NCBI RefSeq assembly: GCF_002994745.2
Contig: NC_037093.1
Span: forward strand, 11,078,400 to 11,142,399
DNA from: Rosa chinensis
Taxonomy: Eukaryota; Streptophyta; Magnoliopsida; Rosales; Rosaceae
Direction: 5' to 3'
Length of the DNA stretch: 64,000 nucleotides
Shown: piece after piece, positions 14,674 to 50,192 of the stretch
Layout of the letters: every line of letters begins with the position of its first letter
Numbering within the stretch: position 1 is the first letter of the stretch
Notes under the pieces: generated by a model
Told to the model about the DNA's origin: nothing
The model's database searches: none
What the model saw: the letters and a program-made list of their open reading frames with translations, nothing else
Translations under genes and position numbers: made by a program

Positions 14674-14797
14674 GAGTTTGTCCTTTGTCTTCATCCTCTG
14701 TTCCTTTTGCCCTAAAGTTTGCAATACCTTGCCGTCAACCTCTCCTTCCTTAGCCGTGTCAAATTTTGTGGTGTGTGTTGTTGCTTGAAGAAGAAGA

Positions 14798-15071
14798 ATG
14801 GTAGATTTGTCCCTTAGTTCGTTGTTCAACAGTCAGGTGACTTGCAACTATTGTAAAACTGTTGGCCACTACAAGAGTCAATGCCCCAAGTTGCTAAGAC
14901 TCAACTCCAATAACTTTGGTTGGAAAAGAACTAACAATGGTCAGAAAAGCAAGGCGGCAATCCAACTGGTGCAGGAGCAAGAACCTGATTTCTATGATGT
15001 GGAGGGTCAAGATCAAACTAAGGGTAATGTTTCCCTAACTCAGGAGAATCGAGGTAAAATTGGTGTCGCTT
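14798..15071 (+). pseudogene. Copia 2 gag remnant (zinc knuckle)
   Basis: A short gag piece carries one CCHC knuckle, CNYCKTVGHYKSQC (14831-14872). The usual N-terminal gag domains are missing: only about 120 bases separate the nested solo LTR from this point. The frame runs into the MITE at 15075. Confidence 0.75.
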
Positions 15072-15074
15072 TAA

Positions 15075-15396
15075 GGCCCCGTTTGGGATTGCTTCGTTTT
15101 TTAAAAAATCAGCTTTTGTTCAAAATTTTTAGATTTTATTGTGTTTGGTAAATAAATAAAAAGCAGCTTTAATTGAAAGTTATAGGTCACTGGCAGCAGA
15201 TTCTAGAAGCAGCCTAGATGTTGCTTTTAGAAGCTGTTGTGGATCAAAACATGATCTGCAGTTGTTTTATGTACTGGTAGCACTTTTAAAAATATTATTT
15301 ACCAAACACGAAACTGTTTTAATTCACAACTGATTATTCTCACAACACAGCAGCAAGCAGTTTTTTTCAAAAGTCACAACAATCCCAAACTAGCCC
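15075..15396. mobile_element. Tourist-like MITE
   Basis: 322 bp. It begins GGCCCCGTTTGGGATTG and ends CAATCCCAAACTAGCCC, an inverted repeat of about 17 bp, flanked by TAA (15072-15074 and 15397-15399). The 3-bp TAA target and the GTTTGG-type end fit the PIF/Harbinger (Tourist) group. No coding capacity. It separates gag from protease in Copia 2. Confidence 0.85.
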
Positions 15397-15399
15397 TAA

Positions 15400-26376: not shown

Positions 26377-26989
26377 TCCGGACTCTATTCCATTGTATAT
26401 ATGTATATATATTTAAGTTACTTGGTTGCAAACACTGAACTACAGCTAGCTTTAACTTTAAACCAAATTATAGGTTGGCCACCAGCTTAATTAACTGTTC
26501 AACTGCTTTCATCATAGTTTCAACTATGGCAGAACACATTTCTGCTAGTAGCATCTTGAATCAATTCGAATGATGTACTAATTAAAACTCGTTACCAATT
26601 AATTTATAGGAGCTGATCGAGATGGTCTACAAAGGCTTTGAAGTTTGAACTGAATAAAAAAACAGTAGATGTTATGGATAATTCTCTCTCGTACTCTTGT
26701 TGTTAATATATAGAGACAGAGCTATGCCTGTTGTGTATGGCATCTGCTACTGCTAGACAGGGTACTGCAGGCTCTAAAAAATATAATACTCTAATCCAAC
26801 TTCTAGAAATTGTACTGCGTGCTCATAAGTTGACAATTCCATATGAAAGTTGCCCTTTCAAACCAAATTATAAAGAAACAAAAGAAAATTGACATATGGA
26901 GTTAGATTGTTGAGAATTTTAAACCTCACAGTGGTTTTTTAATTTCAAGCATTGAATACTCAATCAATTCGAGGGGTTTAGTCTTCAAT
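26377..26989. other. Intergenic between cyclase and Root cap gene
   Basis: Cyclase 3' untranslated region followed by the upstream region of the Root cap gene. No clear TATA box or repeat was picked out. Confidence 0.4.
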
Positions 26990-27366
26990 ATGGCTCTCTC
27001 CAAACTGCTAGTTTTTGTTCCAATTATCTTCCTAATTCTGATGGGAATGATGACCGAGGCAGCAACTCCTCCGGGAATTGCCAAGAATCCTAGCAATGCA
27101 AGGTGTTTGATAGAGAAGTACAAGCACTGTTACAATTTGGTGCATGTGTGCCCCAAGTTTTGTCCCGATAAGTGCACAGTTGAGTGTGTGTCATGTAAAC
27201 CCATCTGTTCTGGGGGCACAACATCTCCCACTACACCTTCACCGACACCTACACCTACCGCACCAACTCCTACTCCATCACCTCCCATATATTACCCTCC
27301 TCCTCCTAAAACGCCCACACCGCCTACTCCAACCCCAACACCGCCAACTCCAACTCCCACACCACC
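26990..27366 (+). pseudogene. Root cap-family gene, 5' part (split by Gypsy element)
   Basis: Open from ATG 26990: signal peptide (residues 1-25), then eight cysteines (39, 47, 54, 58, 62, 66, 69, 73) in a CPxxCPxxC and CxxCKPxC arrangement, then a proline-threonine-rich tail of repeated TPTPTPP type. It is cut at 27366 by the Gypsy LTR; the frame would end four bases into the LTR. The same gene resumes at 43426. The family (Root cap, PF06830) is known from proteins of root cap and related plant tissues, probably wall-associated; molecular function is unknown. Confidence 0.85.
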
Positions 27367-28183
27367 TGTTTGAGCCCAAAATTAATTTTGGCAAGATCTT
27401 TTAGTGGATTTAGCACAGCGGGCCGATACCTGCGGCCCAAAAATAAGTCTACTTAGGTTTGGATTACAGCTTCGCCCATTCCATAATCCATGAGGAAAAC
27501 GAAACCTTATTAGAGTCAAGTAGCAGAAATTGAATAGGAAACTTCAATCAATAATCCTTCTATAGTAAGGAACGGTCAAAACCCTAAGTATAAATACTAG
27601 GTTTCAAGGACAGGAGCAGGAGCTCTCTCAAAATCAATCAATCCCAGCGATTACAAAGCCTCCCCGGAGCAAACCTTCAACCTCGTTGAAACCCGGTGAC
27701 CGCGTGCCAGTCCTAGTCTCTCCAAGAGCCGACTGTCAGCATCACCAGAACAACCCGGCGACCGTGCTTCCAGTCCTAGTCTCTCCGCGAGCCGACTGCC
27801 AGTACTACTGCCACCGAGACTCTCTCGACCAGCGAAGCAAGGGTAACGCCCTCGCAACCCAGCGAAGCTAAAGTCACGCTTTAGCAAAACCCGTGCTTTC
27901 TCCAAACTTCCCAGTGATTGCTCTGCTCAGCCTACAACGTTGAGTATCGATTCGGTGACGCGAAGAGATCACATCCAAAGTCCTTATCCGTAAGGCAAGA
28001 AGTCCTTTCTCGGAAGGCTAGAGAAGAACCTAGTGGCGAGGTTGGTGCTCTCCTCGTCCACAGTGCTTGAAGAAGAAATCAGGTCAAGGGACTCCCCCGA
28101 CGACTGCACCCCATGGTGCTGGCACACCCGCGCACAGGCTCAAAAGAGACAGTTTGCACGCCAATTGGTTTTGGAGCCAAACA
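27367..28183 (+). repeat. 5' LTR of the Tat Gypsy element
   Basis: 817 bp, TGTTTGAGCCC...GCCAAACA. TATAAATA at 27589-27596 is the likely promoter. It keeps about 273 bp (27868-28140) absent from the 3' LTR. Confidence 0.93.
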
Positions 28184-28204
28184 TTTTGGCACGCCCAGTG
28201 GGAC
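28184..28204 (+). promoter_or_regulatory. Primer-binding-site region of the Gypsy element
   Basis: TTTTGGCACGCCCAGTGGGA directly follows the 5' LTR, the position of the primer site. The tRNA was not identified with certainty. A similar TTGGCACGCCCGC occurs at 61272-61284. Confidence 0.6.
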
Positions 28205-28390
28205 GGACAATAGTGTCTCTTCGTGAACGTAGCCATTGGGAAGTCGAGCGAAAACCCTTACCAAAAGGCTTACGCTAACTACTCAAAGCATAAGACCTCC
28301 AGTTACAGACTGCATTCTCGTGCAGACTGTCGTGGTCTTTCTGAAGAACAAGTGACTCAAAGATTTTCTCGTCATTCCCAATCATCCGAT

Positions 28391-30958
28391 ATGTCAACTG
28401 AACGAGGAGAGAATCACCCGACCGCTACTGAGGGTCAGAATGTCACTACTAATCAGGCCAGTGAGCCTGTCATCACTACCGCTGTCTCCAATACAGTGGA
28501 AAGTGGAGGAAGAGAGGCTTTCGTTGCGAAGCCTATTCCAGAGGGAGCGACCTCCGAGGTGAGGTTCGCGATCATCATGGAGAATATTGAAAATCATCGC
28601 AAGAAGATAGCCGCTGATTTTGAAAGGGAAACCGCGAAAACAGACCGGCTCATAGGCGAACTAGACCAGCGCATTACCCGACATGCAGAAGATACTAAGC
28701 AACAAATCGCACAATCAGAGAGTGCAGTAAGGGCTCATGCCACAGGTATCGCTAGTGAGCAGAATCAGTGCCAAAAAGAGATCATGGAGGCTATCACGAA
28801 CCAAACCAAGCAGACTGCGTTAGATATGGCAGGTCTTCGCAAGGATGGCGCTAACCTCGCAACCGAGGTGGCCATGCAAAGAGCAGAATTGAACCGGGCA
28901 AGAGAAGTATTGAACAAAGCTTTAGGGGATCCTAATGCTATCCTCGGCTCCCTTGGCCAGCCATCTGGTTCGGGCAAGTACGTGCCGCCAAACCAGCGAG
29001 AGAAGGTTAGCAGCAATACCGCTACACCTTCCACAGCCGTTACTGCTACGCAACTGAAAAGTAAAGAGCAAGCTTTGGTTATTGGAGGCAGCAAAGAAAA
29101 TGCCACCCCGTCAGGCGAATAGACCACCAGACAAAAGCATCAGGCATCAAAAGTTGGTGGAACCTCGTCCGGCTCTACCACATTCGTTCAATACGACAGC
29201 GACGGGGCAGAAAACGTATACCAAGAACTGCCAGGAAGCTATTATGGTATTGACCAGGCTGGCAACCCGATTAAGATAATAGCCTTAACAAAAGAGATGC
29301 CCATACCAACAGTGACTCTTCAGCAACCAGCTACAACCCACGTTGTACATGTAGGAGAAGGGACAGTGACTCTAAACCAAGCAATACCCTTGCAGGCTAC
29401 TCGCCATACTGTGGCAACACCCCCTCCTCCGCCTTCGGGTCCAGAATATGTAAGATGTGAAGAGGTAGAGGAGATGATCAGGCTGGCTAATCCTAGGACC
29501 CAAGTGGATGGGGTCTATGAGGGACCTTTCCCGCCGCATGTAATGCTCGCGCCTTTTCCCAGGGGTTATAAAAATATCATATTTTCTACTTTTTCAGGAG
29601 AAGACACCGAGAATGCGGCTACCCATCTGGCCAGGTTTAGGGTACAATGCGGCCAATACCAGAATGATGATATCCTCAAATGTAGGATCTTTGGCACTTC
29701 TCTCTCGGGAGCTGCCTTTAGATGGTTTTCCAAACTTCAGCCAGAGACCGTGGCGGATTGGCCCGCAATGGAAAAGCTTTTCCGTGAAACCTTTGGAGCC
29801 ATTGAGCCTGAGGTTGACTTGGCTTCTCTCACTCAGATGGCCCAACAGCCTACAGAGTCCGCTGTGGCCTATCTTCAGCGCTTCCAAATTCAGAAAGCCA
29901 AGCTGAATGTCATCCTACCTGAGAAAGAGTTAGTCAAACTGGCGATCAAGGGTTTGGAACCTCGTCAGCGAAAGAAGCAACATGGCAGCATGATCCAGTC
30001 AATGGGAGAGCTCATCACAGAGGTAGGCAGCTTTGAACATCTCCTCAGAGAAACTGACGCAAGGAAGAATGCGTCCAAAGGGACTTATGTACCAGGAAAA
30101 CATCGCACCGTAGTGGCCCTGAGCTACCAGCCGGCTACTTATGACCCTTACTACCATTATCACATTGAAGAAGTGGTTCAAGATGACGATGAGGAAGAGG
30201 AGAATGATATCGCTGCTTATGAACTAACCGGGAGGAAGAATCCAGCCCTGAAGCAACTGAAAATTTCCAAGGAGCCTGTCAAGCTCAAATTGATGGCCTT
30301 CACCAAACCTGAATTCGCCACATATACTTATGATGCCAATAAGGCACATAAGATTATGGATGAGATGATCGCCGCGAAGATGGTGAAGACCGACTTTGGA
30401 CCTTTTCCTCGACCAGACCAGCTGAAAGGGAAGAAGTACTGCAAATTCCACAACCTGTGGAATCACAATACCGCGGACTGTGTGAAGCTCAAAGACCAGA
30501 TTCAGGTATGGCTTAATAACGGCAGTTTGCAGGTGGAAGCTCCAGTAACGGCGACAGTGCTCGTAGACTTGAACCATTTTCCTGACACTGGGATCAATAT
30601 GGTCGATATGAATTGGGCCAAGCAGAACCAGAGGAAACCAACCTTGGATTCGAGTACAAGGGAACGAGAAGAAAAGTCTGCTGAGGATGAAACCCCTGCA
30701 AAGAAGAAAGCAAGACCAGTCGGAAAAGCCTCACCCGTGGTCCTATGCTCGCGATGCAAAGAAGAGTGTGGCATCCAAGTGTCACATGAAGAGGTCGACC
30801 AGACATTTCATTTTGGCTCTCTCCCGCCCATTAAGTGGGCCTCGCCATCGCGGAACTATCAACCTTCTAGCCCAAGAGAAAAAGAGAAAATGGAGTCATC
30901 ACCATCCCCAAAGGACTCCAATTTATTCAAGAAACTGAGAGCGGCCGCGGTTGTTTAG
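28391..30958 (+). pseudogene. Gypsy gag
   Basis: One frame from ATG 28391 with a stop (TAG) at 29120-29122. The N-terminal part contains a long alpha-helical, probably coiled-coil stretch (28560-28900). The Retrotrans_gag core lies at about 29570-30060 (IFSTFSGEDTENAATHLARF, GAAFRWFSKL). Further on is a CKFHNLWNHNTADC knuckle-like motif (30439-30480). A second TAG at 30956-30958 separates it from the rest of the polyprotein, which stays in the same frame. In the living element gag-pol was probably one long frame. Confidence 0.85.
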
Positions 30959-33158
30959 AAACAAGAGGAGAAGGCCACGAACGAGCGCAAGGACATTCTG
31001 ACCAAGCCCTATATCCCACCTGCTCCATCCGCCACCATCAAGGAAGGAAAATGGTACACCAGGGAAAAGGGGAAGGCAATGGAAATAAGCCCTTCCAGGA
31101 AGAGGAAACTGCAGCGCAGGTTTGGGGAAGCCAAGCGCGCGCTAGAGGCTCTTGACCAGGGCCTGATCAAGCCTTTGCAATTGGTCAAATCACCTGAGCA
31201 GTATCAGAAGGAGATGGAGGCACTAGGTGCTAAGCCATTAATGGCTCCCCGCAGCCTTCAGAAACAAGCAACAGGGGCATCTAAGCCCAGTGTTTTTTGC
31301 AGGATCACTGAAGAGAGAACACCTCCTCCAGCTCGAAAAGAGAGTTCGCCGACTCGGCGACCACATGTCAGGCGCAGGTTGTTTCGCGAAGAACCAGAAG
31401 CTAAATCTTCGATTTTTGAGAGACTGGGGGGCAAGGACAAGACTACCGATACTTTACAGTGGAGACCAAAAAGAGTCCAGAGTGTAGTGGTCGCTCCCCT
31501 AGAGGTAAGCACAGCAAGGGAACCGAAGTCAGACTCGCCCAAGCAGGCTCCTGTGATACAAGAACACAAGCAGTGTGAGGTAAAAGGCCTTACAGAGGAG
31601 TAGTTAGTAGATCGGTTGGCTAAGCAATTCAACATTGACGCCCATGTCAACGAACCCAAGCTTAATCTGGAAGATGACATGGAGGAGACAGATATGACTG
31701 ACACGTCTTGCAACATGGTTTACGTACTCCCCGCGCGGTATGCGCTACCGGTCGCCGCTCAGGACTACGTCGAAGCTGAGGAAAGTAGTTTGCAGCCCTT
31801 GCAGATCACATCGGCAGTCACGACACCTGTGGAAGAAGCTGTGTTTCTTGAAACGGAGGATGCTCACAGCAAAGAATTCGTCATGAGCTTCACCAAGCTA
31901 ACACCTGCTATGGTCCAACACATGAGACCTTTATATATCACAGCAGAAGTTGGCGGCACCAAAGTTAGCAAGATCATGGTTGATACCAGAGTTGCCGTTA
32001 ATGTCATCACTACCAGGACCATGCACTTGCTCGGAATCATGAAGGAGAAAATCCAGTCTACATCCCTCACCCTAAAAAACTTCACGGGGACTGTAACAAA
32101 AACCCTGGGATTACTTTTCTTGCGCATCAAGGTTGGCCCTGCTGAGGGAGTTTATGCTTTCTTTGTGACAGATTGTTATGTGGCCTACAGTGCTATTCTG
32201 GGCAGAGACTGGATCCATCGGAGCTACTGTGTTCCGTCAACTCTCCATCAGGAACTAGTTATGTGGAACAGGGAGACAGATAAAGCGGAGGTGATTAAAG
32301 CGGATCCTCGTCCATTCCCAGTTTCCGCGAATTATGTAGATGTCGGGTACTATTTAGAGCCTATCACTCCATTGCAGGTCAGTGGCATCGATGACAAAGG
32401 TCGCCCCACAAGGGTGACCGCCTCTAAATTGGCACAGTGGGGGCTTACGCTCGCAAAAGAAGGCTTGGAAAGGCCTGGCCACGCTGTGCCCAAGCCCTTA
32501 AACGATTAATGGATTACGACCTTCCAGAGGAAGGGATAGAGGCCTTCCACTCGCTGTATGAAAGACTATCTTCGTACTTAGTGGAAAAAGAGGCCTATGA
32601 TCGAGTCGCGATCTTAGAGGCCGTTAATGAAACACTCTCTGAACAGGAACAAGAAGATGAGGTCGATATTCAGCTCGCTCCGGCAGCGCTGGACGACACA
32701 CCTCCTTAGGTCAGAGATACTACCGAGAAGGTCAATCTCGGAACAGCAAATGAACCTATGGAAGTGGTTATCAGTGCTTACTTAGGGCCTAGCGAGAAAC
32801 AGAGGCTCATTGACTTATTACATGAATTCAAAGACTGCTTCGCGGAGAAATATGAAGACATGTCCGGCCTGTCACCGAACTTGGTTTGCCATCAACTGCC
32901 AACACTCCCTGACAAGAGGCCTGTGAAACAAGAGCCACGAAGAATGAATTCAGACACCCAAGTCCTCATCAAAGAAGAAGTCGAAAAAATGCACAAATCG
33001 GGCATTATCAAGGTAGCCAAATACAATCAGTGGCTATCTAATATAGTGCCTGTTCGCAAGAAGAATGGCAAGATAAGGGTCTGCGTAGACTACAGAGACC
33101 TTAATATCGCTACACCTAAAGATGTCTACCCCATGCCGGTCGCGGATATGTTGGTAGA
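30959..33158 (+). pseudogene. Gypsy protease and N-terminal RT
   Basis: Continues the gag frame with a TAG at 31601-31603. The retropepsin-like protease lies at about 31930-32230 (KIMVDTRVAVNVI), where the usual D-T-G active site reads D-T-R, so it should be inactive. A frameshift lies near 32480-32510 and a TAG at 32707-32709. RT begins about 32990 (KSGIIKVAKYNQWLSNIVPV, IRVCVDYRDLN) and is interrupted at 33158 by the solo LTR. Confidence 0.88.
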
Positions 33159-35085
33159 TGATTTGAGTGCTTGAATGCAACTTTCGCGCAATAAGGGCAC
33201 GGTCATCAAAGAAGTGGCAAATATTTAGACCCGAAATTATCGTACCACGGGGATTGAAAAGGTAACTTCAATCCTTGGTTATGCCGATTACTAAGTCACT
33301 AACAATTAACAAAAAAAACCTAAAAATAGCACCAAGCTATTTACATACCCGGCTCGGAACAACCAAGCCTAAAATGGGTCAAGAGAACCACAAATAAATG
33401 CGGAAGCTCACAACCAAATGGTATGGACAATGAAAGTGGTTTGTGAAAATTGATTTTTTTAATTACGAAGAAAATAAAATTGACAATTGAAAATTAAAAT
33501 TAAAATTAAAAATAAAGATAATAGAAACTAATCAAGAAATGGAAATTAGGTCACTAGGGTATCCTCCTAGCCAAATTTAATGCACAAATATATTCGGACA
33601 ATGGTCATTCAATTCATAGTGGCATCAAGAATCGTACCCAAGGCTTTTCAAGGCTCATGGATCAATAGATTCCTTAAAGAGTATTCCTACTCCGGATCAA
33701 GGGTCGTAGAAACTCAATTGGGACAATCTAGAGTCTTGTTAGGGCCTCTAGTTGCACCAAAAGGCGAAGAGTCCTAGAATCAAGGTTCCCAAGCTAGCCA
33801 ATACGGCAATCGAAATTGGTATTGTAACTAACCATGTTCTAAACAAGTGTCCTAGCCATGAATTAGAGAAGTGATTAGGTCCCCTAATTTGTTCTAGACA
33901 TGCTCATCTACACATTCAAGAGTTAATCAAGCTCCTAAGCATGCATCTAAGCCAAATATTATAGAATAGAACATACGCCAAACACGAAATTGAAAACCAT
34001 TAAATCAAAACATATTTATTACATTAAATCCATGCTAGGGCTCAAACCCTAGCTTCCTAAATAGACTACTCACAATCCATCCACAAATCAACAACAATAT
34101 TCATCAATTAAATAGGTAAAGGTGAAGAAGAGTGAGAAGTAACAAGAACAAGTCACAAATTGCTATGGAGCAATTATGACAAGCCTTGATTGATGGCTTC
34201 CCACTATACCCAATCTCAAATCTTGATGCCTCTTGAAATCCCTTGAGAAATTGATGAGGATTTGATGGAATTTTGGTGTGGTGAATCTTGTTGAGGTGAT
34301 GGTGGATCTTGGTGAGGAGAAAAATAATCTTAGTGAGGAGGAAAATGGATCTTGGTGAGGTGGAGTGGATCTTGGTGAGGAAGTTCTTGGTGTAGAGGAA
34401 AATGGTGTGGAGTGAGAGAGAGAGGGTGCGGCTACTGTTGTTGGTGTCTGAGAGAAAGAGAGTCGTCCTCCCTGGGAATAGGGTTCTCTGTCGAAGAGTG
34501 AAGGGATGATTATATATGGTGCTGCAGTCTGAGGGTTAAATAGGCACGTGAAAGCATGTGAGGTGAGAGTCATCTTTGCAGAGAAGAGAGGAGCTAAGGT
34601 TGCTACGTGTCAAAAATTGAATGGCTGCACCTATTGATTAATTGGACCATAATTAAGCGGCTGTGGCTCCCCTCCCCCTGCACGTGCATGGCTTCTACAG
34701 TTCAACCAAAGCTTGATTAATTAAGCTAATTAATCAAGTGATTAATTAACTTAATTAATTAAGCTGCATTATTTTCTTTTCTTTTCTTTTCCCCATTTTT
34801 TTTCTTTCTTCTCTTCTACCTCAACGCACTTCCACACATTATCAGAGATGGTTTGATTCCGCTCTCTTGATGGTGTTGACTACGGTTGACCCGCGTTGAC
34901 TTTTTCGTTCTTTTGTCGGAAACTCCAATTTGCTCCAATTTGGAACCATTTTCTCTCGTTTCCGCAATTCCGCTTATTTTCTACAAAGTAAATAAAAATA
35001 GATTAATTACATATTAATTGACATGAGGATTAGCTTAATTCTAGTGTTTTAGATATAATTACACGCATATAAATGCGTATAATCA
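33159..35085 (-). mobile_element. Solo LTR, 1.93 kb, in Gypsy RT
   Basis: Begins TGATTTGAG and ends GTATAATCA on the plus strand, with target duplication gtaga at 33154-33158 and 35086-35090. Same family as 12692-14673 and in the same (minus) orientation. Insert plus duplication is 1932 bp, divisible by three, so by chance the host frame is kept on both sides. Non-coding. Confidence 0.88.
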
Positions 35086-35090
35086 GTAGA

Positions 35091-37960
35091 CGTCGTAGCA
35101 GGACATGAATTGTTGTCCTTCATGGACGGCACCGCAGGGTATCACCAGATTCCGGTCGCAGAAGAAGACATACATAAAACCGCGTTCCATTGTCCTGGCT
35201 TCGCGGGAGTTTTTGAATATGTGGTTATGCCTTTTGGACTGAAGAATGCCGGAGCAACGTATCAGAGAGCCATGAACCTGATCTTCCATGACATCTTGGG
35301 GAAGATTTTAGAGGTCTACATCGATGACGTAGTTGTGAAGTCTCAACAGAGAGGAGACCACATCACTGATATCAGAAAGGTATTCGAGCGCATGCGGCAA
35401 CACAAGCTCAGAATGAATCCCGCTAAATGAGTTTTTGGAGTTCAAGCAGGAGATTTTCTGGGATTCATTGTCCATCAGAGAGGGATTGAGGTCCCTGAAG
35501 ACAAGGCAAGCGCAGTCATCAATGCAACCGCTCTAAGAACGAAAAAGGAATTGCAGCATTTGCTGGGTAAGATCAACTTTCTGAGACGTTTCATCTCTAA
35601 CTCTGCAGGTAAAATCCAACCCTTCTCTCCATTGCTGAAACTGCAAGGTCAGAATGAGTTTGTATGGGAGCCTAAACATCAAGAGGCTTTCCATAGAATC
35701 AAGGCCTACCTTGCGAGTCCGCCAGTGCTTGTTCCCCCGAGAACTGGATTTCCATTGAAGTTATATATTTCAGCAGTTGAGGCTTCCATTGGCAGCCTAC
35801 TCGCCCAGGATGATAAGGAAGGCGTCGAGCACGCCATTTTCTACCTCAGTAGGACACTTACAGATTGTGAAACCAGGTATACTCCAATGGAAAAGCTGTG
35901 TCTTACATTGTACTTCTCAGCATGCAAGTTGCGGCACTACATGTTATCCTTTACTACTTGCATCATCGCTCAGACCGATCTGGTCAAGTACATGCTGTCG
36001 CAACCTATTCTGAGAGGCCGCATTGGCAAGTGGGTATTGGCCCTGTTCGAGTTCTTGCTACAATAAGTTCCCCAGAAAGCAGTGAAAGGACATGACATCG
36101 CAGACTTTCTGGCACATCACCCTATCTTGGATATCCCCACAGTGAAGGAGTTAGAGATAGCAACCGTAACTACCACTCGATCAGATTTGGCGCGCATTCC
36201 AGAGTACGCAATATGGTATCAAGCCACAGTCTCCTTGCAACCCTGGGTATTGTCTTTTGATGGCTCAAGAACTGAAACATTAGCAGGGGCAGGAATTGTC
36301 CTGGAGAACCCAGCGGGCGATCGTTTCTCTTACTCTTTCCAATTGGAGTTTAAGTGTACAAACAACCAAGCAGAGTATGAGGCCCTTATTATTGGCCTAG
36401 AAGTCTTACTGGAAATGGGAGTAAGAGATGTTCAGGTACGCAACGACTCTTTGCTCGTGATCAATCAGCTTCAAGAGAAATACAGATGTGCAAGCTATTT
36501 GCTCGTCCCATATCTGAATCGCGCCATTGAGCTTTTGGATCAGTTTGATGACGCGGATTTGGAGTACATCCCTCGCGAGCGCAATTTCGCGGCCAATGAA
36601 CTTGCTCAACTGGCTATAGGCATTACATTGAAGTACGGGGTTCGCGAGCGCATTCTGAAAGTCGAGTGCCGCACACTGCCTTCATGGCTCACGCGGCCTG
36701 ACCCTCCTGATGAGCCGGTCGTCGCTGTCCTAGAGCCTATTGACATCGATTGGCGCATTCCGTTGATCGATTACCTCAAACAACCAGCTCTTACAGCAGA
36801 CAGGAAGATTCGCTTTCTTGCCTTAAATTACTTCCTCAGGGGTGACGAGCTGAGACGGCGTGGGAAGATGGCATTGACTTCCGATGTGTTTATGGCCGTG
36901 AAGCGAAACGATTAATGCGCGAAGCACACACAGGAGTATGTGGAGCCTATCAAGCGGGACCTAAGATGCGTTGGCTCATCAGGAGACATGGGTATTATTG
37001 GCCCAGCATTTTGAAGGACTGTATCGCTTTCGCCAAAGGATGCCAAGACTGTCAGGCACACGGTCCAGTCCAGCACATTCCCAATATTCCCATGCAACCT
37101 ATTATTAAACCTTGGCCTGCACAAGGCTGGGCACTGGACTTGATTGGGATGATTCACCCCCACTCTTCTCTCCATCACAAGTTTATCATCGTCGCTACTA
37201 ATTTCTTCACCAAGTGGGTCGAAGCTGAGCCTTTGAAAGAGGCTTCAGGTGCCACCATTCGCCAATTCATATTTCATAACATCATCTGCAGGTTTGGTAT
37301 CCCTGAAGTGCTTGTTTCCGACAGGGGGGGAGCATTCATGAGAGGTGAGGTGGAGAAACTTGTCAACGACTTGGGCATCCAGTTCATCCACAGCACTCCA
37401 TATTATGCTCAGTCCAACAGTCAAGCGGAAGCCGGTAACAAGATTATTATTACCCTGCTACAACTCCCTATGCACTAATGTTTAGCCATGATGCAGTTTT
37501 ACCCTTGGAAATCAACGTTCAATCGTTACGGGTGCAAGATTAGCATCACTTGATCGGTGAAGATTATGTCCACGCGATGTGGCAAGAATACGAAGATCTG
37601 AGCGAGCAGCGCTTAGCGACTTTGGATAATTTAGTGATGGAAAAACAGCGTATCGCCCACGCCTACGATAAGAGGATGCGTGGCAGTAGTTACAAAGAGG
37701 GGGACCTTGTTTAGAAAGCTGTTTTGCCCTTTGGCAAGAAATTGACCGGTCGCGGTAAATGGACTCCACGATGGGAAGGACCCTTTGTTGTTCACCTCAT
37801 TTTGGAATGCGGGGCTTTTCACCTCAAGGATTTGGATGGCGAAATCCATCGCAATCCCATCAACGGGCGATTCCTGAAGAAATATTACCCTAGTGTTTGG
37901 GAGTTCGAGGATCCACTGGATCAACCTTCTTCCCAGACTGGGGGCAACCATAGTCTTCAT
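35091..37960 (+). pseudogene. Gypsy RT, dual RNase H and integrase
   Basis: RT resumes after the solo LTR (LLSFMDGTAGYHQI, then VYIDDVVVKS at about 35316), followed by the first RNase H (35650-36050), a second archaeal-type RNase H (about 36235-36620, with SFDGSRT and NNQAEYEALI) and integrase (36915-37478, zinc motif with KGCQDCQ and catalytic residues in ALDLIG, SDRGG and AEAGN). Lesions: TGA 35428-35430, TAA 36064-36066, frameshift near 36905, an apparent deletion at about 37465 after the last catalytic residue, and stops in the C-terminal part to about 37960. The second RNase H marks the Tat lineage. Confidence 0.88.
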
Positions 37961-39308
37961 CGGCTCGCATCATCTATATATTCAGGCCCTTTTGTGTGGC
38001 CTTAGTCTCATGTGTTTGCTTCGCCTATGAACACTAGGGGGGCAACACTCTATACATTCAGGCCTTAGTTGAGGCCTTATTTTTTATTAACAATTTCAAC
38101 TTCCGCTTTTGTTTTTGTTGTAACTTTTTCTTCCTTGACCATGTGTGTTAAGAATATACATGATGGCCTGTACATGAGGCCTTATTTTATAACAATATTT
38201 TTAGCTATACTCAGAAACATTCATTCATAGAGTGGCTTTGCGGCCAAAAGCAGTACAAATTGAAACGGTTACATTCACAATTATAAGGCCAAAAGTGGCT
38301 TAAAAATCATAAGGATTGCAGATCTTCTACGAGTTTCTGGATCTTGTGGCGACAAGCGGAAGTGATGTGATCGCTCATGCTCTTCCTCTCTTCACCCACA
38401 TCCCTCCTCCAATATGAGTCACAGCTGCTATCATCTGTACCGGAGGAAGAGGGAAGGAAATAATCCATCGCAACCAGAGATGAAGATGGAGATGGTCTTC
38501 AGTTGATTATCCTCCGGGATGGAGATGGTCTTCAGAGAGAGCGCGACTCACAACCACATCTACCTCCAGGGGAAAAATGGAAGCCTGATAGTCAGACCCC
38601 GGAGGTAGGCTTCGGAAGAAGAACAATAGGCCTCAAAGTGGCCTTCCGCCCTTCACCCTCCTGCTCCACGCGAGAAGTCTGAGGAGAGGGATCCCTCAGA
38701 ATCTTGTTCTGCCGCTTTAGGAGCGCCACATGTTCTTCGGTCTAACTGAAACCGGTAAATCCCATCCGGATTTCCAGAGACCAAAGACATGCGGCTGGAC
38801 CTGAGATTAGGCCATAAGACCTACCCAGGTTTTGAGATTAAGCCATAAGGCTTAGGAATTTGAGGCTAAGGTTGAGATCATGAGGAAAAGCTTTCAGAAA
38901 CTGAAGGAAGAGAAGTAAGGATTGCGAAACTATCTCTGGGAAAGCCATATTTGCTGGTGCTTATCACTTCTCCAAAGTACAAGTATTTATAGGGCCAATC
39001 TCAATGGCCTCAACCGTGCGATGGACAGTTGAAGCATTTTTCAACGCCATCAATAAGAGTATCAATGGAATTGAATGCTAGGATCTCGGAAATTAAGGTA
39101 ATTGAAAACGCGTGGGAAGCGGGGTAGTCTTCAAGGAGGTAACCGCTCCATTGATATTATCTTTTCCAACTTCAATAGCAATAAAGGTAAATTAAAACGC
39201 TGAACTGCTTAAAAATTTGAGCATATATTTGGGCCAAGCAAAGTGGGCTAAATATTTAAATTATGAATAATAATATTGTTCATACAAAATCGGCTTAACA
39301 ATAGAGGC
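37961..39308. other. Gypsy untranslated region between pol and the antisense gene
   Basis: No long open frame. Contains short repeats of the kind GAGGCCTTATTTT (around 38070 and 38180). This stretch is the 3' flank of both pol (plus) and the antisense gene (minus). Confidence 0.5.
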
Positions 39309-42300
39309 CTAAAGTTTTCGGCCTGCATGAGTTAAACGAAGTAGATGCTGGTCCAAGCGAAAACTGGCATCGACAGCGGCTCGCTCCGCTTGTCGGACCG
39401 CCTCGCGAGCTTGAGCTAGGTTCTGAGATAGTATTTCAGAAGCCGCTAGGGGTTGCTCCAACAAGGGTTCCTCATGCTCAAGTCGGGCCGTCACGACAGT
39501 CAATTGGGCCTGAAGATCTTGGATTTGGGACCGGAGATGATTTTGCATGATCCGCAAGTCTCTAACAAGGGTAGCCCTATCTCCTAGAAAGTCATGAGAA
39601 GAGTCCATTTGTTGAGCGAGGCCCTGATAGTGGGCCTGGGTCTGCCTGGCTTGCGCAGTCGCGGTCGCTCTTTCATTAAGCCATTGGGGAGATTCTGTAG
39701 TAGTTCGTCTATCTCAATGAACTCGTCCTCAGTGATGGCATGCTTGCGACGAAGAACCCTCAAATATTCCAGAGCCCGCACGGATGCGCCAGGCAGCAGG
39801 ATATCGGGACTCAAAAGACGGTGAAGTTCATCCCTGGCTTCATCTATAACTCCGGGAGGAGTCACCTCAAGTACGCGAGCCAGTCTGTCCAATCTGGAAG
39901 GAGGCACAGGCAGTGGATTTAGGGCAGCAGCAGCTGGAGCCTCAAGAGGCTCCACAATAGGAACCGCTTCCAGCACCGGTTCGGCGTTCACCCCTCATTC
40001 TTCTTCAGGAGCAGCAGGGGCAGGCTCTTGGTTGACCACATCTTTACCAACTGGGTCAGTGGGATTAGCGCCAAGTTCTTCCACAGTGATAGCTACTTCC
40101 TCGACAGGGCCAGGATTCTGGGTTTAAGGAGGAATCATGAGAACGCCCAAAGAATCAGGCAAGAATCAGGACATCATGCTTGTTAAAGAGAAACGTACCT
40201 CTGCAGTTGGAGGCTCGCCGAGGATTGCTATCGGCACGGGTTCTTGGACCACCTCTTCAGGAATTGGATCGGGCGCTATCTCTGCCAGGACAGGTGTGAT
40301 GTTTGGCTCCTCACAAGTTGCATCTGAAAGAGGCAGTCTTTCTTCCACTTCAGGTGAGCTATCATCTATGACCTGTACCGGGATCAGGGCCAATTGTATA
40401 TTGCTCGCAATGCTGGTAGGAGGTGGAGGATTATTGGAACCAGTGGGCGCTTGGGCCTGTGAAGCAGATGTGCCTTCACCGACAGCTGAGGGGCCTTCCC
40501 TAGTCTGTCTTGAGGACCTACGACGAACCTGCAAGCGAGGATTGTTATATGGTCGCACGGAATAAAAACAAGATTCCAACGTGCACTTTTAGTTTTTTAC
40601 CAGCCGGTCAGCGATTGGTTCATCTTCCGCCTACGAATCAGTTCGAGGGTCAGAGCGACTGCGCTTGCGGGCCAAGATAGCAGCGATCTGCCGGGTTCAA
40701 AGGAAAGGATTAGACTCGACTTGGAAAGAAAGCATTGTTTGTTTAATCAAAAAAGTTTTTATCGTTTGCGGGTCATCCTCGTCGGAAGAGGAACCTTCTA
40801 CTTCAGGCTCCGTTATTACTGTTTTTTGCTTCCCAGATTGGCCAGTGGCTGGGGAAGCATTAACCGCGTGGATGCCAGAAGGTGGCACATTTCCCTGGTG
40901 CAGCAAAGTTTGAGTTAAAAGGAAGAGTGAGAGAAGGAATAAAATATGAACTAAGATACTTACATCTTGAGGGGGCTCGCGAATTACGATACCAGCCTGG
41001 GCTTGGCGCGGGGCTAGCGCCGGTTGAGGAGCCGGCTTAGGAGGAGGAGGCGGAGATTGTGCAGCATCTTCAGAGAAGCGATCAAGTAGCTCAATGTCAG
41101 CAGCATAGGGACATCTCAGTTCCCCAAAGATGGTCGCGAAGAGTTCATCAAACCGTTGTCTCCAACAATTGACAGAAACTTCTGACCACCATTCCTCATA
41201 TCCTTCTTCAGTCCCATCCACGGCATCGATGTCCTTAGCCCAATCAGGAAGATCGACCAATGCAAGCATGCTTTGTGCTGGCAAAGGCCCAGAAGGGGGC
41301 CCAAATCTACGCCAGGAGGTGTTGTAGTTCCAGGCATCATACAGCAGGAATGGCACTAATTGGACAAGGCTGAGTTGGTGAGCGAAATGGTTAGGAGCGT
41401 AAAGCTCATAGCTGAGTTCTTCGACAGCAATCCTGATGTCTGAACAGGAGATCGCGTGCGCGATCGCTGTAGCGAGGAGCGCCAGGGAGGAATCCGTTTT
41501 CAAGCGGAGCCGGGAATCTCCTGCCCAGTACTAAGTCGCAGTAGGGCATCTCATGCAGAAGGTACAGGTATGTAAAGCACTCGGAGTAAGGAGGAGATGA
41601 GTACTTTTCCTCGCGGCTGAACCATTGACCCAGGAGTTGGTCAGCCGGTGGAAGCAGTGGGATGTCATCACGACAAAAATATGGGAAATAAGTTTGGATC
41701 CAGAAGTCAAGGATCCAAAAAGGGCCAGAGACGCTGGTCTCGAAAGGATGCATAGTGGCCTGGTACAGAGTGCGATAAAGGGCGCCCAACATGGGTTGTC
41801 TGAGCCCGACACGGCAGCCGTTGTAGAGGGTCGTTGCCAGAAGAGTCCAAGCACCAGAGGGCTTACAGGAGGAAGTACAGAAGATGAACTTACAGAGCCA
41901 GTATTCTAAGAAAGCAATTCCGCCGGTCGCATTGTGCTCCCAGCTGTAATAAGATAGCCACCGCAGATAGGAGCCGCTGTGAGCGCTGCGACTGTTTTGG
42001 GCCATGGTTGAAATGAAAGTGACAGAGTCGAATTGGCCATGCAGATAAGGCTCGCCATCAATGGGTAGGCTAGTGATGGTGAGAATATCCAGTAAAGTGA
42101 TACCCATTTGGCCAAATCGAAAATCAAAAGTGTTTGTGGCAGTGTTCCAAAAACAGAGAAAGGCAGCGAGCGGTGAAAGATTGCCACCGCGCGGAAGACA
42201 AAAACAAAGATCAATAGTGTGAGTGATACCTGCCGTGTTCCAGCAAGCCAAATCTCGTGTTCGTGCTTCGCAATACCAGGAAAGCTCCGCCGCGCTGATA

Positions 42301-42611
42301 AAGGATGGCCAGTGCCCTATCTTTACTCGATGATTCTGGGCACCCCAACTGTTGAAATCCCCAGGAGTCCTTCAGAGGACTGGGGTGGGTCGACGAACGG
42401 GCAGGCCATAGAAGGCGATGGCGTCGGCCGGGATAGAGTCTCGCGGCGCTGGGCCCAGTCCAACATGGTAGTTCGGGAACCGGAGAAGTAGGGGTCTTTG
42501 GATATTGGTGTGGAGGAAAATGCGGGCGTCGATGTTGGTTCCCCAAGAGTGGGCAGCATGTTCATTCAGTTCTTCTTCTTGATCGATGACTATCTTCTTT
42601 GGGGGAGCCAT
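39309..42611 (-). pseudogene. Antisense plant-mobile-domain-like gene with introns, inside the Gypsy element
   Basis: From ATG 42611 on the minus strand. Exon 1, 42611-40964, holds the plant mobile domain (aminotransferase-like) signature, for example WNTATNTFDFRFGQMGITLL and LPIDGEPY (about 42060-42150). Exons 2-5: 40894-40763, 40687-40601, 40528-40199 and 40117-39309. Introns of 69, 75, 72 and 81 bases all keep phase 0; three have GT-AG ends, the second has AT where GT is expected. Exon 4 is acidic and proline-rich; exon 5 ends in a probable coiled coil. Lesions: TGA at 42372-42374, frameshift near 41510, TAG in exon 3, TGA near 39994 and a frameshift near 39670. Function unknown; such genes in Tat elements are thought to be captured host genes. 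Confidence 0.8.
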
Positions 42612-42859
42612 TTTTGGGTTTCTGTGAGGAAGATGTTGGCAGTAAAAGGGTTTCTGGGTTTAGGAACTAAAAGAGTTTCTGATGTGACAGGTATGAAATG
42701 GCTGCAGGTTTTAAATAAGAAATTTTGTGAGGGAAACGATACGACAGAAAGGCGTTTTCGCAAGTGAAAGGACACAACCCTCATTAATGATATCGTTTCA
42801 AGCAATCGGCATGTCGTTTTAGCCCCCTTCAATCAGTTACATCTTCGCGAGCCTGCTTT

Positions 42860-42876
42860 CGGGGCCTGGGGGGCAA
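42860..42876 (+). promoter_or_regulatory. Polypurine tract region of the Gypsy element
   Basis: G-rich GGGGCCTGGGGGGCAA lies just before the 3' LTR at 42877. Not a pure purine run, so the exact primer end is uncertain. Confidence 0.55.
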
Positions 42877-43420
42877 TGTTTGAGCCCAAAAATAATTTTG
42901 GCAAGATCCTTTAGTGGATTTAGCACAGCGGGCCGATACCTGCGGCCCAAAAATAAGCCTACTTGGGTTTGGGTTACAACTTCGCCCATTCCATAATCCA
43001 TGAGGAAACGAAACCTTATTGGAGTCAAGTAGCAGAGATTGAATAGGAAACTTCAATCAATAATCCTTCTATAGTAAGGAACAGTCAAAACCCTAGGTAT
43101 AAATACTAGGTTTCAAGAATAGGAGCAGGAGCTCTCTCAAAATCAATCAATCCCAGCGATTACAAAGCCTCCCCGGAGCAAACCTTCAACCTCGTTGAAA
43201 CCCGGTGACCGCACGCCAGTCCTAGTCTCTCCAAGAGCCGACTGTCAGCATCACCAGATCAACCCGGCGATCGTGCTTCCAGTCCTAGTCTCTCCGCGAG
43301 CCGACTGCCAGTACTACTGCCACCGAGACTCTCTTGACCAGCGAAGCAAAGGTAACGCCCTCGCAACCCAGCGAAGCTCAAAAGACACAGTTTGCACACC
43401 AACTGGTTTGGAGCCAAACA
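42877..43420 (+). repeat. 3' LTR of the Gypsy element, internally deleted
   Basis: 544 bp. Same ends as the 5' LTR (TGTTTGAGCCC, GCCAAACA) but lacks 273 bp matching 27868-28140. The junction has a short shared AGCT/GGCT sequence, suggesting microhomology deletion. TATAAATA at 43098-43105. Confidence 0.92.
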
Positions 43421-45744: not shown

Positions 45745-45945
45745 TGTTTTAGAGAAACTGGAATTGAGAGAAAATTGTTGTGTATTCTCATTGATAATAG
45801 GGGTCTCTTTATATGGAGGATTACAAGGCATAGAGTCTGAATCATACAAGGAAAGATAATCTCTAGATTCTTCTAAATTAAACCCTATTACCACTAGGTC
45901 AACCTAGAGTTTAGGCCAAACACAAATTAGGGTTTTACTATAACA
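45745..45945 (-). repeat. 3' LTR of Copia 3
   Basis: 201 bp, TG...CA. Confidence 0.93.
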
Positions 45946-46137: not shown

Positions 46138-47664
46138 TCATGGGAGTTCAGATAATTTCAGCAAGCCAATTCTTGCCACATGTTTCTCGAAAGTGGATTT
46201 GGGAAATGACTTAGTAAACAAGTCTGCCACATTTTCCTCAGATCGAACCTTGTTCACTTTGATCTTGAGGAGCTTCTGTTGTTGCTGATTGTAGAAGAAT
46301 TTGGGCGATATATGCTTGGTATTGTTACCTTTGATATAGCCTTGCTTCATTTGTTCAATGCAAGCAACATTATCCTCATAGATGCTTGTTGGCTCATCTG
46401 TGGTAGATTTCAGACCACAATTACTTCGAACATGCGTAACTATAGATCGAAGCCATATACATTCACGAACTGCTTCGTGAATAGCAATAATCTCAGCATG
46501 ATTCGAAGAGGTAGCGACTAAGGTCTGCTTTGTAGACCTCCAAGAAATAGTGGTCTTTCCCATGTTGAAAACATAACCAGTTTGGGAGCGACCTTTGTGT
46601 GGGTCAGAGAGGTACCCAGCATCAACAAAACCTTCCAAAACACTTATATCGTTTTGGGATGGGGAGAGGGGACTTAGTCCACCATTTATGGCATCCCTGG
46701 CACTTGATGGGTCCGAATCCATCTTCTCTCTGTAGTGATAGAACAAGCCCATATCAATCGTACCACTTAGGTATTGAAAGATATCTTTAACACCAGTCCA
46801 ATGGCATCGTGTTGGCGCAGAGCTATATCTAGCTAGCAAGTTCACAGCGAATGAGATGTCTGGTCTTGTGCATTGCGCTAAGTACAATAATGCGCCTATT
46901 GCACTTAGGTATGGCACTTCTGCCTCTAGCACTTCTTCATCGTCATCTTTTGGACGGAATGGATCTTTCTTTGGATCAAGACTACGGACGACCATTGGGG
47001 TGCTTGAAGGCTTAATCTTGTCGTCATCACAAAGAACTTGGGTGGCGTTATGGCGTCCCAAGACAGCTGCAGTGCCAGATGCTGTGGTAGCTGCTGTCTT
47101 ACTAAGTCCTGAAATCAATTTTTGATTCTTACTTCTTCTCACTCTGAAGAATGGATGTCTGTGTGAAGTCTTTAGTATACAGAGCATCATATCACGACCA
47201 GGATGTCCTAGTCAGTCATGCCAAAGCCAGTATGTATCAGAATCCAAGAGATCTTCTCTTATTACATTATTGGATTCAATTGGTCGAATTGTAGTGACAT
47301 AAAGTCCATTAGATTGACACATAAGCTTCTTTAAGATGCACTTTTGTCCGCAATCATTAGAGGTAATGCAAAGGAACTCTTTTCCGTTTTCATTATGCGT
47401 TTCCGCATGGAATCCGTTAGCTCTTATATCTTTAAAACTTAATAAGGTTTGATTTGCCTTAGGAGCGTAAAGAGCTTCTACGACATTGATCAAGGTGCCA
47501 TTTGGCAATAGGAATTGGGCCATTCCATGTCCTTGAACTAAACCTGATGGCCCAGCCATCATAGTCACAGAGGAATATGTAGGCAACATCTCCAAGAATA
47601 ATTGCCTATGTCGTAGAATGGTGTGCGTAGTCGCACTATCCACGAGACATTGTAGTTCATCCAT
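46138..47664 (-). pseudogene. Copia 3 protease, gag-pre-integrase, RT end and RNase H
   Basis: One frame from about 47664 to the stop at 46138. It starts with a protease-like segment (LVDSATTHTILR) and the gag-pre-integrase motif (YWLWHD, then LGHPG), interrupted by TGA at 47210-47212. About 60 residues later it jumps, in frame, to the C-terminal RT region (YLSAIGALLYLAQCTRPDIS) and RNase H (TISWRSTKQTLVATSSNHAE, ending LFTKSFPKSTFEKH). The integrase core and the RT catalytic YVDD are absent. Confidence 0.88.
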
Positions 47665-49132
47665 TCCTAAAAGAAAAGTTCGTAATTAAAAGGAGTCATA
47701 AAGAAAAGAACTCGACTTTTATTAATAAGCCAAACGGAATTACATCATTGTTTCTTTTGGCCAAAGAAAATCTAATCCAATAAACGAGCTAATGCAAAAC
47801 AATGGTAGTCGTCTAACTCCTTTCGGTAATTCCAATGCAAATGTGACTAGGTGAGTAGAGAGATGTCAGTGGACCAAGGCTCGCTTAAGTACCACTTATC
47901 TCAAAACCTTCCTAGACATCACACTTACATTGAGTACGCCTACTTTGAAGAAAGACTAATACCATTGGCATCTACTACAAAAATAATATGGCAATTGCCT
48001 ACATCTCTTGGAAAATAAAAAGACTTAATCAAAATCACCAGTTTCTGGGTCTTGATTCTGGAAGTCTTCCACCCTTAGATCGAGATCACCATCTTAATCT
48101 TCTTGTTCCATGTAGTTTGCCTCCCTTGCTTCGCAATACCTCCTGTATGCTTCTGCAACATTCTGGGATGCTTTACATGCTTTGGCCCAATGTGCAGTTG
48201 ATCCACATCTGAGACAAGCATCATTATGGTCAGGTTCCCTTGATCGAGGTGCTTTGGGAGCGCTTTGAGGACGGTTATTGCCTTTGGTGGCGTCACCACC
48301 ATAACCGGAGGCTTGGCCTCTCTCTCTTCACACGTTTTCCTCCACAGTTCCGTGTACGCCTATCTTGGCGGTTTCCTTCCTCTTTGGGGCGAGAATATGG
48401 ACCAGAACGTCTAGAATTATCCCTATGTTTAGGGTTTTGCTCTTTGCGTCCTCCCTTGGAGGCGCGACTATAATTAGACTCCAGAATTGACTTGGCTCCC
48501 ACGGGTCTAGAGTTATAGTTCTTCACAAGTATGTTGTCGTGCTTTTCAGCTACGTTCATGGCACCAATTAGCTCATGAAATCTTGTGATGCGTCTAGCAT
48601 TGACATCAATCCAATAGTTTTTGGCTACCATCAATGCAGAGATGGGGAAGGTGGAGAGAGTTTTCTCGATCAACATTGTATCAGTGATTTTCTGTCCACA
48701 TAATTCAATCAAAGACTTGATACGAAGTGTTTCTGAATTGTAGTCAAGTACAGACTTGAAATCACATAAGCGGAGGCTATGTCATCTCACTTCTAAGTCT
48801 GGAAGCAGGGAATCACGGAAGTTGCCAAAACGCTGCTCGAGTTCTACCCATAGTTTTCTTGGGTCTTCCTCATTGAGGTACTCATTTTGGAGCGCGTCAT
48901 TCATGTGCCTTGTCATGAGAATGATGGCTTTTGCTTCATTAGCCTCTCTCGTAGCTCTATTTGCTTCAAAAGCAGCAGGTTGTTGAGGAGTAAGCAAGTC
49001 CTGACTTGGCTCTTGGATCTTACTCAGGATCCCATTAGCCTTAAGATGCTAGCACACATCACGGACCCACTTGTGGTATCCTGCGCTTGTTATCTCTAGT
49101 GGAACGAAAATCAACTTGTTCAGGTTACTCAT
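47665..49132 (-). pseudogene. Copia 3 gag
   Basis: Starts at ATG 49132 (MSNLNKLIFVPL). A UBN2-type gag core follows (RHMNDALQ, LWVELEQRFGN), with a CCHC knuckle CLRCGSTAHWAKAC at about 48175-48216. Lesions: TAG soon after the start (codon after VRDVC), TGA after DLEVR near 48780, and at least one frameshift before the knuckle. Not functional. Confidence 0.8.
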
Positions 49133-49987: not shown

Positions 49988-50192
49988 TGTTTTAGAGAAA
50001 CTGGAATTGAGAGAAAATCGCTGTGTATTCTCATTGATAATAGGGGCCTCTTTATATAGAGGATTACAAGGCATAGAGTCTGAATCATACAAGGAAAGAT
50101 AATCTCTAGATTCTTCTAAATTAAACCCTATTATCACTAGATCGAGTAACCTAGAGTTTGGGCCAAACACAAATTAGGGTTTTACTAGAACA
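49988..50192 (-). repeat. 5' LTR of Copia 3
   Basis: 205 bp with a minus-strand TATATAAAG around 50050. Directly inside it the minus strand reads TTATCAGCACGAGC, the expected primer-site position; the matching tRNA was not identified. Confidence 0.92.

What the first reader, a model, noticed from the sequence alone, without database searches (positions are those of the whole stretch)
39309..42611. Intron-bearing antisense gene carried inside a Tat-lineage Gypsy element
On the strand opposite gag-pol lies a five-exon gene with a plant mobile domain in exon 1. All four introns are short (69, 75, 72, 81 bases), all are phase 0, and the frame carries correctly across each. Introns survive because they are read backwards in the element's RNA and cannot be spliced. 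Exons 2-5 (acidic linker, coiled coil) are not part of any retrotransposon domain I know. Antisense ORFs and PMD genes are known from Tat elements, but this exon set and C-terminal fusion may be undescribed. A product could silence or regulate the element or host.
Basis: partly seen in the sequence, partly recalled or inferred. Interest (0 to 1): 0.8.

Follow-up and report, generated by a model that had tools for sequence, protein, structure and literature searches.

The report
Spliced antisense gene in rose retrotransposon
A repeated jumping element in a rose genome carries, on its opposite strand, a five-exon gene for a large plant-mobile-domain protein; the copy examined is broken, but related copies keep its coding frame and splice sites, so it is a real gene that may help the element escape silencing.

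Summary
The structure is there: ATG 42611 to stop 39309, minus strand, introns of 69, 75, 72 and 81 nt at phase-0 junctions, PMD (PF10536) in exon 1. This copy is a pseudogene: three in-frame stops, two frame changes, a non-canonical intron-2 donor. The family is not. In 40 further copies from the same genome (of 124 scored hits; 37 chosen because the matched stretch had no stop) GT..AG stands at introns 1-4 in 36, 34, 36, 36, at all four in 28. Intron lengths take every residue modulo 3, so they are not coding. Ten of 40 have all five exons open (1,009-1,012 aa). dN/dS in open exons is 0.10-0.37, against 0.90-1.68 in shifted frames. TATTTAAA precedes the ATG in 39 of 41 sequences. A second PMD family, 54-57% identical, has four corresponding introns. 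PMD and antisense ORFs in Tat elements are known; I found no description of introns in such a gene in the open papers searched. Function is inferred: a nuclear oligomeric factor helping the element, perhaps counter-silencing. No RNA evidence was available.

The parts
27367..28183 (+). 5' LTR, begins TG, ends CA
   Evidence: self-BLAST and end match
42877..43420 (+). 3' LTR, shorter than the 5' LTR by an internal deletion; flanked by CCACC as is the 5' LTR
28214..32509 (+). gag-protease frame with internal stops; Retrotrans_gag at E=7.7e-11
35431..36063 (+). RNase H (RT_RNaseH_2, RT_RNaseH)
36067..36912 (+). second RNase H (RVT_3), the aRH of Tat elements
   Evidence: lineage meaning from PMC6317226 passages
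36846..37475 (+). integrase (rve, Integrase_H2C2)
42710..42717 (-). TATTTAAA box upstream of the antisense ATG (inferred promoter)
   Evidence: exact motif within 150 nt upstream in 39 of 41 sequences, at -103 to -109 in 35 of them
42675..42689 (-). conserved block about 30 nt below the TATA box (possible transcription start)
   Evidence: 10-base windows with majority fraction above 0.93; role inferred
40964..42611 (-). exon 1 (broken here: one stop, one frame change)
41676..42167 (-). PMD (PF10536) match within exon 1
   Evidence: residues 69-232 of window:41409-42371:-
40895..40963 (-). intron 1, 69 nt, GT..AG
40763..40894 (-). exon 2, acidic
40688..40762 (-). intron 2, 75 nt, donor non-canonical in this copy
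40601..40687 (-). exon 3, basic patch; in-frame stop in this copy
40529..40600 (-). intron 3, 72 nt, GT..AG
40199..40528 (-). exon 4, acidic/Pro-Ser-rich linker with a hydrophobic-acidic motif
40118..40198 (-). intron 4, 81 nt, GT..AG
39309..40117 (-). exon 5, helical and coiled-coil C-terminus; one stop and one frame change in this copy
   Evidence: helix from the model of P0021

Best explanation
The window holds a decayed copy of a real accessory gene carried antisense between pol and the 3' LTR of a Tat-lineage Gypsy element. Shown by comparison: the family keeps five exons, four spliceosomal-type introns at phase-0 junctions, a TATA box of its own and a coding sequence of about 1,010 aa under purifying selection. 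Inferred: RNA polymerase II reads it from this internal promoter, the mRNA is spliced, and the protein (PMD, acidic linker with basic patches, helical region, coiled coil) enters the nucleus, oligomerises and acts in trans. The introns persist because the genomic RNA carries them in reverse, where they cannot be spliced. Most likely role: a factor that helps the element, by countering the host's PMD silencing pathway (MAIL1/MAIN/PP7L in Arabidopsis). My odds: 0.93 for the spliced gene family, 0.7 for a trans-acting nuclear protein that helps the element, 0.35 for the counter-silencing mode itself. The confidence below is for the gene plus a helpful trans-acting protein, not for the counter-silencing mode.
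For: Splice dinucleotides kept in 92-100% of 38 copies per site against 54% inside the introns; GT..AG counts 36, 34, 36, 36 of 40. dN/dS 0.10, 0.19, 0.20, 0.37, 0.19 for exons 1-5 against 0.90-1.68 in shifted frames. All five exons open in 10 of 40 copies. TATTTAAA in 39 of 41; ATG in 40 of 41. Four corresponding introns in a second family. Public Rosa models join exons 1|2 alike in 6 (P0018, P0020, P0021, P0022, P0031, P0033) plus the second-family model P0030, and 2|3 in 7. Host PMD proteins act in TE silencing (passages); counter-silencing by TE-encoded PMD is suggested in a review (passage).
Against: No RNA evidence. The sample was biased towards copies without stops in the PMD stretch (37 of 40). 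Only 28 of 40 have GT..AG at all four introns. Some public models do not follow the junctions: P0017 and P0032 skip exon 3, P0018 and P0030 run into intron 2, P0022 into intron 4, P0023 reads through intron 1, and P0016, P0019 and P0032 join differently before exon 2 (by eye). Nuclear entry, oligomerisation and counter-silencing are untested; both structure models are poor.
Confidence: 0.65

Rival explanations
1. A replication accessory protein: like retroviral accessory factors it serves nuclear import, RNA handling or integration of the element rather than silencing.
For: Vicient and Casacuberta 2020 propose such roles for antisense ORFs in general, noting a nuclear product of maize Grande (passages); the C-terminal coiled coil would suit assembly.
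Against: No match to a replication protein in Pfam or PDB sequences; an independent promoter and introns are not needed for that.
Confidence: 0.3
2. The protein restrains its own element (copy-number control) by recruiting silencing, as host MAIL1/MAIN do.
For: Host PMD proteins MAIL1 and MAIN promote silencing (passages).
Against: The coding sequence is kept through amplification of a family with at least 124 matches, easier to explain if it helps the element.
Confidence: 0.12
3. The antisense transcript, not the protein, is what matters: it pairs with genomic RNA or feeds small RNAs.
For: Antisense transcripts can restrain retroelements (passages of PMC7264820 and PMC12786077); in tea, PMD genes are sources of phased siRNAs (PMC10673657 passages).
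Against: Codon-level constraint in all five exons and conserved splice sites are not expected of a non-coding role.
Confidence: 0.06
4. A chance reading: degenerate sequence with accidental GT and AG.
For: This copy has three stops, two frame changes and a non-canonical donor.
Against: Forty copies and a second family keep the structure.
Confidence: 0.01

Closest known systems
PMD-bearing extra ORFs of Ogre/Tat Gypsy elements (Neumann 2019, PMC6317226; PMD-A1/A2 clades of Ikeda 2017, PMC5418596; first reported by Steinbauerova 2011, not held)
   Same: PMD encoded by Tat-lineage Gypsy elements; 57% of Ogre elements have it (passage); PMD-A clades are exclusively Gypsy-encoded (passage).
   Different: The passages I saw describe no introns and no spliced C-terminal half; Neumann used uninterrupted ORFs of at least 250 codons. 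Membership in PMD-A was not tested.
Antisense ORFs (aORF-3R) of Grande, RIRE2 and Retand; TRP28 ORFs of Retand (PMC7264820, PMC11963269)
   Same: Antisense, between pol and 3' LTR; own promoter reported for Grande gene23 (passage).
   Different: PMD instead of Transposase_28; four conserved introns.
Sense-strand intron of Ogre and splicing of EVADE (passages)
   Same: Spliceosomal introns in plant LTR elements.
   Different: Those are on the gag-pol strand; these are in an antisense gene.
Host PMD proteins MAIL1/MAIN (passages)
   Same: PMD; nuclear pathway that controls TEs.
   Different: Host genes that promote silencing; not compared in sequence here.
HTLV-1 HBZ (recalled, no call)
   Same: Spliced antisense gene of a retroelement, made from the other strand.
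   Different: Recalled; a retrovirus, initiated in the 3' LTR, unrelated protein.
VANC21 of VANDAL21 (passage of PMC8616336)
   Same: TE-encoded suppressor of silencing of its own family: the mode proposed here.
   Different: A class II element; no sequence comparison was made.

Membership tests
Tat lineage of Ty3/Gypsy | second RNase H (aRH) present; between RH and INT in angiosperm clades | tested here: met
   RT_RNaseH, RVT_3, then rve in this order; criterion
Tat lineage of Ty3/Gypsy | RT phylogeny | not tested
   no reference RT set was used; RT is interrupted in this copy
Ogre clade | PMD in an extra ORF (57% of Ogre) | tested here: met
   PF10536; criterion
Ogre clade | gag-protease and RT frames separated by an intron-like stretch (274 bp on average) | tested here: inconclusive
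   32509-32710 separates the listed ORFs, but an ATG overlaps the gag-protease stop and that frame runs to one stop before RT
Ogre clade | primer site complementary to tRNA-Arg | not tested
   site seen at 28184 onwards but not compared with tRNAs
Retand clade | antisense Transposase_28 (PF04195) | tested here: not met
   six pieces of the antisense gene gave PMD and no PF04195 at E<=0.1; other antisense ORFs of the element were not scanned
PMD family (PF10536) | score above Pfam's cut-off | tested here: met
   84.8 bits against 34.9
PMD-A clade | phylogenetic placement | not tested
   no MAIL1/MAIN reference sequences were aligned
Spliced protein gene | conserved GT..AG with non-coding interiors | tested here: met
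Spliced protein gene | purifying selection on the spliced frame | tested here: met
Spliced protein gene | spliced transcripts observed | not testable with these tools
   no reads held; public gene models and P0025 (1,001-aa frame on a 3,306-nt contig, source type unknown) are only suggestive

The most novel reading that the evidence does not exclude
Tat-lineage elements carry an ancient, intron-bearing, independently promoted antisense gene whose introns are a working part of the design: only the nuclear antisense transcript can yield the full PMD and coiled-coil protein, which turns the host's own PMD silencing pathway against itself. The small frame-preserving exon 3, which holds a basic patch and is skipped in two public gene models, would let splicing switch the protein's localisation.
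Probability: 0.2. Interest if true: 0.85.

Novelty: new variant of a known kind. Interest (0 to 1): 0.6.

Why it matters
A 2025 review says plant LTR retrotransposons generally lack introns, with Ogre and EVADE as notable exceptions (PMC12786077, passage). A conserved four-intron antisense gene shows how a retroelement can keep spliceosomal-type introns through reverse transcription: by carrying them backwards. It also means that surveys of uninterrupted ORFs see mainly the PMD exon and miss the linker and coiled-coil half. Complete coding sequences under selection make the open question of what TE-encoded PMD proteins do, and whether they counter MAIL1/MAIN silencing, directly testable.

Tried and rejected
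Rejected: that the introns are coding insertions (lengths take all residues modulo 3); that the gene is intact here; that all-3n intron lengths mean anything. Weak Pfam hits in exon 5 (Laminin_II, Matrilin_ccoil, SHOCT_2) lie below their cut-offs.

Led nowhere: the viral-contig scan with P0003 found no relative; the PDB sequence search gave only weak hits to fatty acid synthase in the linker region; two AlphaFold runs (mean pLDDT 43.9 and 42.1) were too poor for a fold search, and none was made. Steinbauerova 2011 and 2008 are not held. Not answered by the genome server: a junction-spanning search for intronless copies and flank fetches to see pol beside the second family. The loci already held, checked, showed no integrase beside the gene; one (L046) has a gag piece near its edge. 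A regular expression meant to count the exon 3|4 junction in public models was too narrow (1 hit); by eye seven models have it.

Print searches behind the statement that I found no description of introns in an antisense PMD gene. One search was rejected for a bad character. Only open-licence PMC papers are in that library.

Full report
Setting. The window lies in a plant genome of 515 Mb in 53 contigs, held as G000. The best protein relatives are from Rosa, so the source is taken to be a rose (inference). An LTR element spans 27367-43420: LTRs 27367-28183 and 42877-43420, TG..CA ends, CCACC on both sides (in a C- and A-rich host repeat, so the target-site copy is not certain), K2P between LTRs 0.037 over 502 sites. 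At recalled rates of 1.3e-8 and 7e-9 per site per year that is about 1.4 to 2.7 million years. On the + strand are gag, RNase H, a second RNase H and integrase in the order given for angiosperm Tat elements. Gag-pol is itself broken.

The gene. Exon 1 carries the plant mobile domain, E=8e-24. In this copy exons 1, 3 and 5 each have an in-frame stop, exons 1 and 5 each have a frame change, and intron 2 lacks a canonical donor. The statement that the frame carries correctly is therefore wrong for this copy.

Is the structure real? The genome search gave 124 scored PMD matches of 1,036 candidates, a lower bound. I fetched 40 gene regions: 37 matches without a stop in the matched stretch and 3 with stops, so the sample is not random. 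They were aligned to the window copy. GT..AG is present at introns 1-4 in 36, 34, 36 and 36 of 40, at all four in 28 of 40. Thirty-seven of 40 keep all four intervening stretches; L023 and L033 have deletions that also remove exon sequence, and L043 does not align there. Of 38 copies per site (window copy, L043 and gapped rows left out), splice dinucleotides are kept in 92-100%, while 180 interior dinucleotide positions average 54%, with 4 of 180 at 92% or more. Mean pairwise identity is 0.82 in exon 1, 0.73 in exons 2-4, 0.72 in exon 5 and 0.61 in introns. GT..AG introns run from 61 to 81 nt and take every residue modulo 3, so the four multiples of three in the window are chance.

Is it a protein gene? 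Exons 1-5 are open in 15, 32, 36, 30 and 15 of 40 copies; all five in 10, nine of these with all splice sites canonical; proteins 1,009-1,012 aa. Nei-Gojobori ratios over open exons (15, 33, 35, 31 and 13 sequences; L023, L033 and L043 left out, the open exons 2 and 4 of the window copy included) average 0.10, 0.19, 0.20, 0.37 and 0.19 for exons 1-5; the same alignments read in the other two frames give 0.90-1.68. In exons 2-4 the ratio is 0.96-2.0 in the closest pairs (6 to 17 pairs per exon) and 0.15-0.37 in the most distant; in exons 1 and 5 it is low throughout, 0.12-0.22 in the closest pairs (3 and 4 pairs). For the short exons this looks like free decay after insertion added to constraint in the lineages that keep moving. 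Taking only open exons removes the most decayed copies; the frame-shift control uses the same copies.

Own promoter. TATTTAAA occurs within 150 nt upstream of the ATG in 39 of 41 sequences, at -103 to -109 in 35 of these, at -90 in one and -58 in three; L017 and L028 lack it. Its 10-base windows are 99% majority, against 85% on average between box and ATG and 91% between LTR and box. A second conserved block sits about 30 nt below it, and the ATG is kept in 40 of 41. Both lie between the LTR and the gene. In the second family TATAAA stands 44 nt upstream of the ATG in 10 of 10 loci, and again about 137 nt further up in 9 of 10. Promoter activity is inferred.

Depth. Eleven more regions were fetched: nine of a second family (L053-L061), L063, which is 95% identical to public protein P0024, and L062 of the first family. 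The second family is 54-57% identical to P0021 over exon 1 (one match also runs into exon 2) and 66-68% to P0024; in L053-L057 tblastn shows separate matches to exons 2, 3 and 5. By DNA alignment, introns 1-4 sit in corresponding places with GT..AG in 8, 9, 9 and 9 of 10 loci (L053-L061 and L063); L061 is damaged. Phase 0 was read off L054 by eye. Its exon 4 also has a hydrophobic run followed by acidic residues. I could not fetch the flanks to show pol beside this family.

Outside this genome. Public Rosa models join the exons as in the finding: junction 1|2 in P0018, P0020, P0021, P0022, P0031 and P0033 (and P0030 of the second family), junction 2|3 in P0016, P0019, P0020, P0021, P0022, P0031 and P0033, junction 3|4 in the same seven by eye. 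P0021, from Rosa chinensis, covers 97% of the read-through query at 75% identity. Against it: P0018 and P0030 run into intron 2, P0022 into intron 4, P0023 through intron 1, P0017 and P0032 skip exon 3, and P0016, P0019 and P0032 join differently before exon 2 (by eye). Whether these models rest on reads I cannot tell, and P0021 may come from the same genome. P0025 (1,001 aa on a 3,306-nt contig) and the Fragaria model P0026 also have PMD, a long linker and a C-terminal coiled-coil-like stretch; in pairwise BLAST the similarity is confined to the PMD part and its surroundings, with only trivial scores further on. The common layout beyond PMD is therefore seen by eye.

The protein. After the PMD come an acidic, serine- and proline-rich linker with basic patches (pattern in exon 3 in 25 of 36 open copies), a hydrophobic-plus-acidic pattern in exon 4 (26 of 30) and a C-terminus of the type xRKL in 12 of 15. 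AlphaFold predicts a long helix at 937-1008 of P0021, block pLDDT 56-91; the rest of both models is mostly poor. Nuclear entry and oligomerisation are inferences from these features.

What it does. Shown: a selected protein gene with selected splice sites. Inferred: a trans-acting nuclear factor. Host PMD proteins MAIL1 and MAIN act in TE silencing with the phosphatase PP7L (passages of PMC5418596 and PMC8616336; [quoted passage not shown] I take that as the likeliest mode at about 0.35; a replication-accessory role is nearly as likely at 0.3, self-restraint 0.12, an RNA-only role 0.06.

Known or new. PMD in Gypsy elements is known: 57% of Ogre elements (PMC6317226, passages) and the exclusively Gypsy-encoded PMD-A clades (PMC5418596, passages; it holds no 'intron' or 'antisense'). 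[quoted passage not shown] PMC11963269, abstract, first part of section 11 and section 12). In the papers searched I found no description of introns in such a gene; the 2019 survey used uninterrupted ORFs of at least 250 codons, and the 2025 Retand paper ORFs of 600 bp or more. The original report of PMD in Tat elements is not held and may mention introns. I rate this a new variant of a known kind.

Noticed in passing
26906-27366 and 43421 onwards: The element sits inside a coding stretch for a proline-rich, cysteine-containing protein; the right flank continues a similar proline-rich repeat.
   Followed up: no
33175-35200: The RT region is interrupted by about 2 kb with minus-strand ORFs (34104-34609), probably a nested insertion.
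   Followed up: no
32507-32511: The stop of the gag-protease frame overlaps an ATG (TAATG) of the next frame, which runs to one stop before RT.
   Followed up: partly
L054 and L063, about 330 nt upstream of the ATG: In the second PMD family the upstream region is duplicated in tandem (about 137 nt), each unit with a TATAAA.
   Followed up: partly
P0017, P0032 (Rosa rugosa gene models): Two public gene models skip exon 3, the 87-nt exon with the basic patch, keeping the frame.
   Followed up: partly
P0010, P0026: Public gene models fuse kinase domains to the PMD of this family, probably annotation chimeras over inserted elements.
   Followed up: no
43350-43420 against 27840-28183: The 3' LTR lacks roughly 280 bp that the 5' LTR has.
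   Followed up: partly
5693-10632 (-), 14789-19920 (+), 46138-48781 (-): ORFs that look like Copia gag-pol pieces of three other elements (by eye); the last lies between repeats 45745-45900 and 49988-50143.
   Followed up: no
53129-53398: A 135-bp unit occurs twice in tandem at 99% identity.
   Followed up: no
exon 4 of the antisense gene: The hydrophobic-acidic motif resembles a SUMO-interacting motif (recalled resemblance, not tested).
   Followed up: partly
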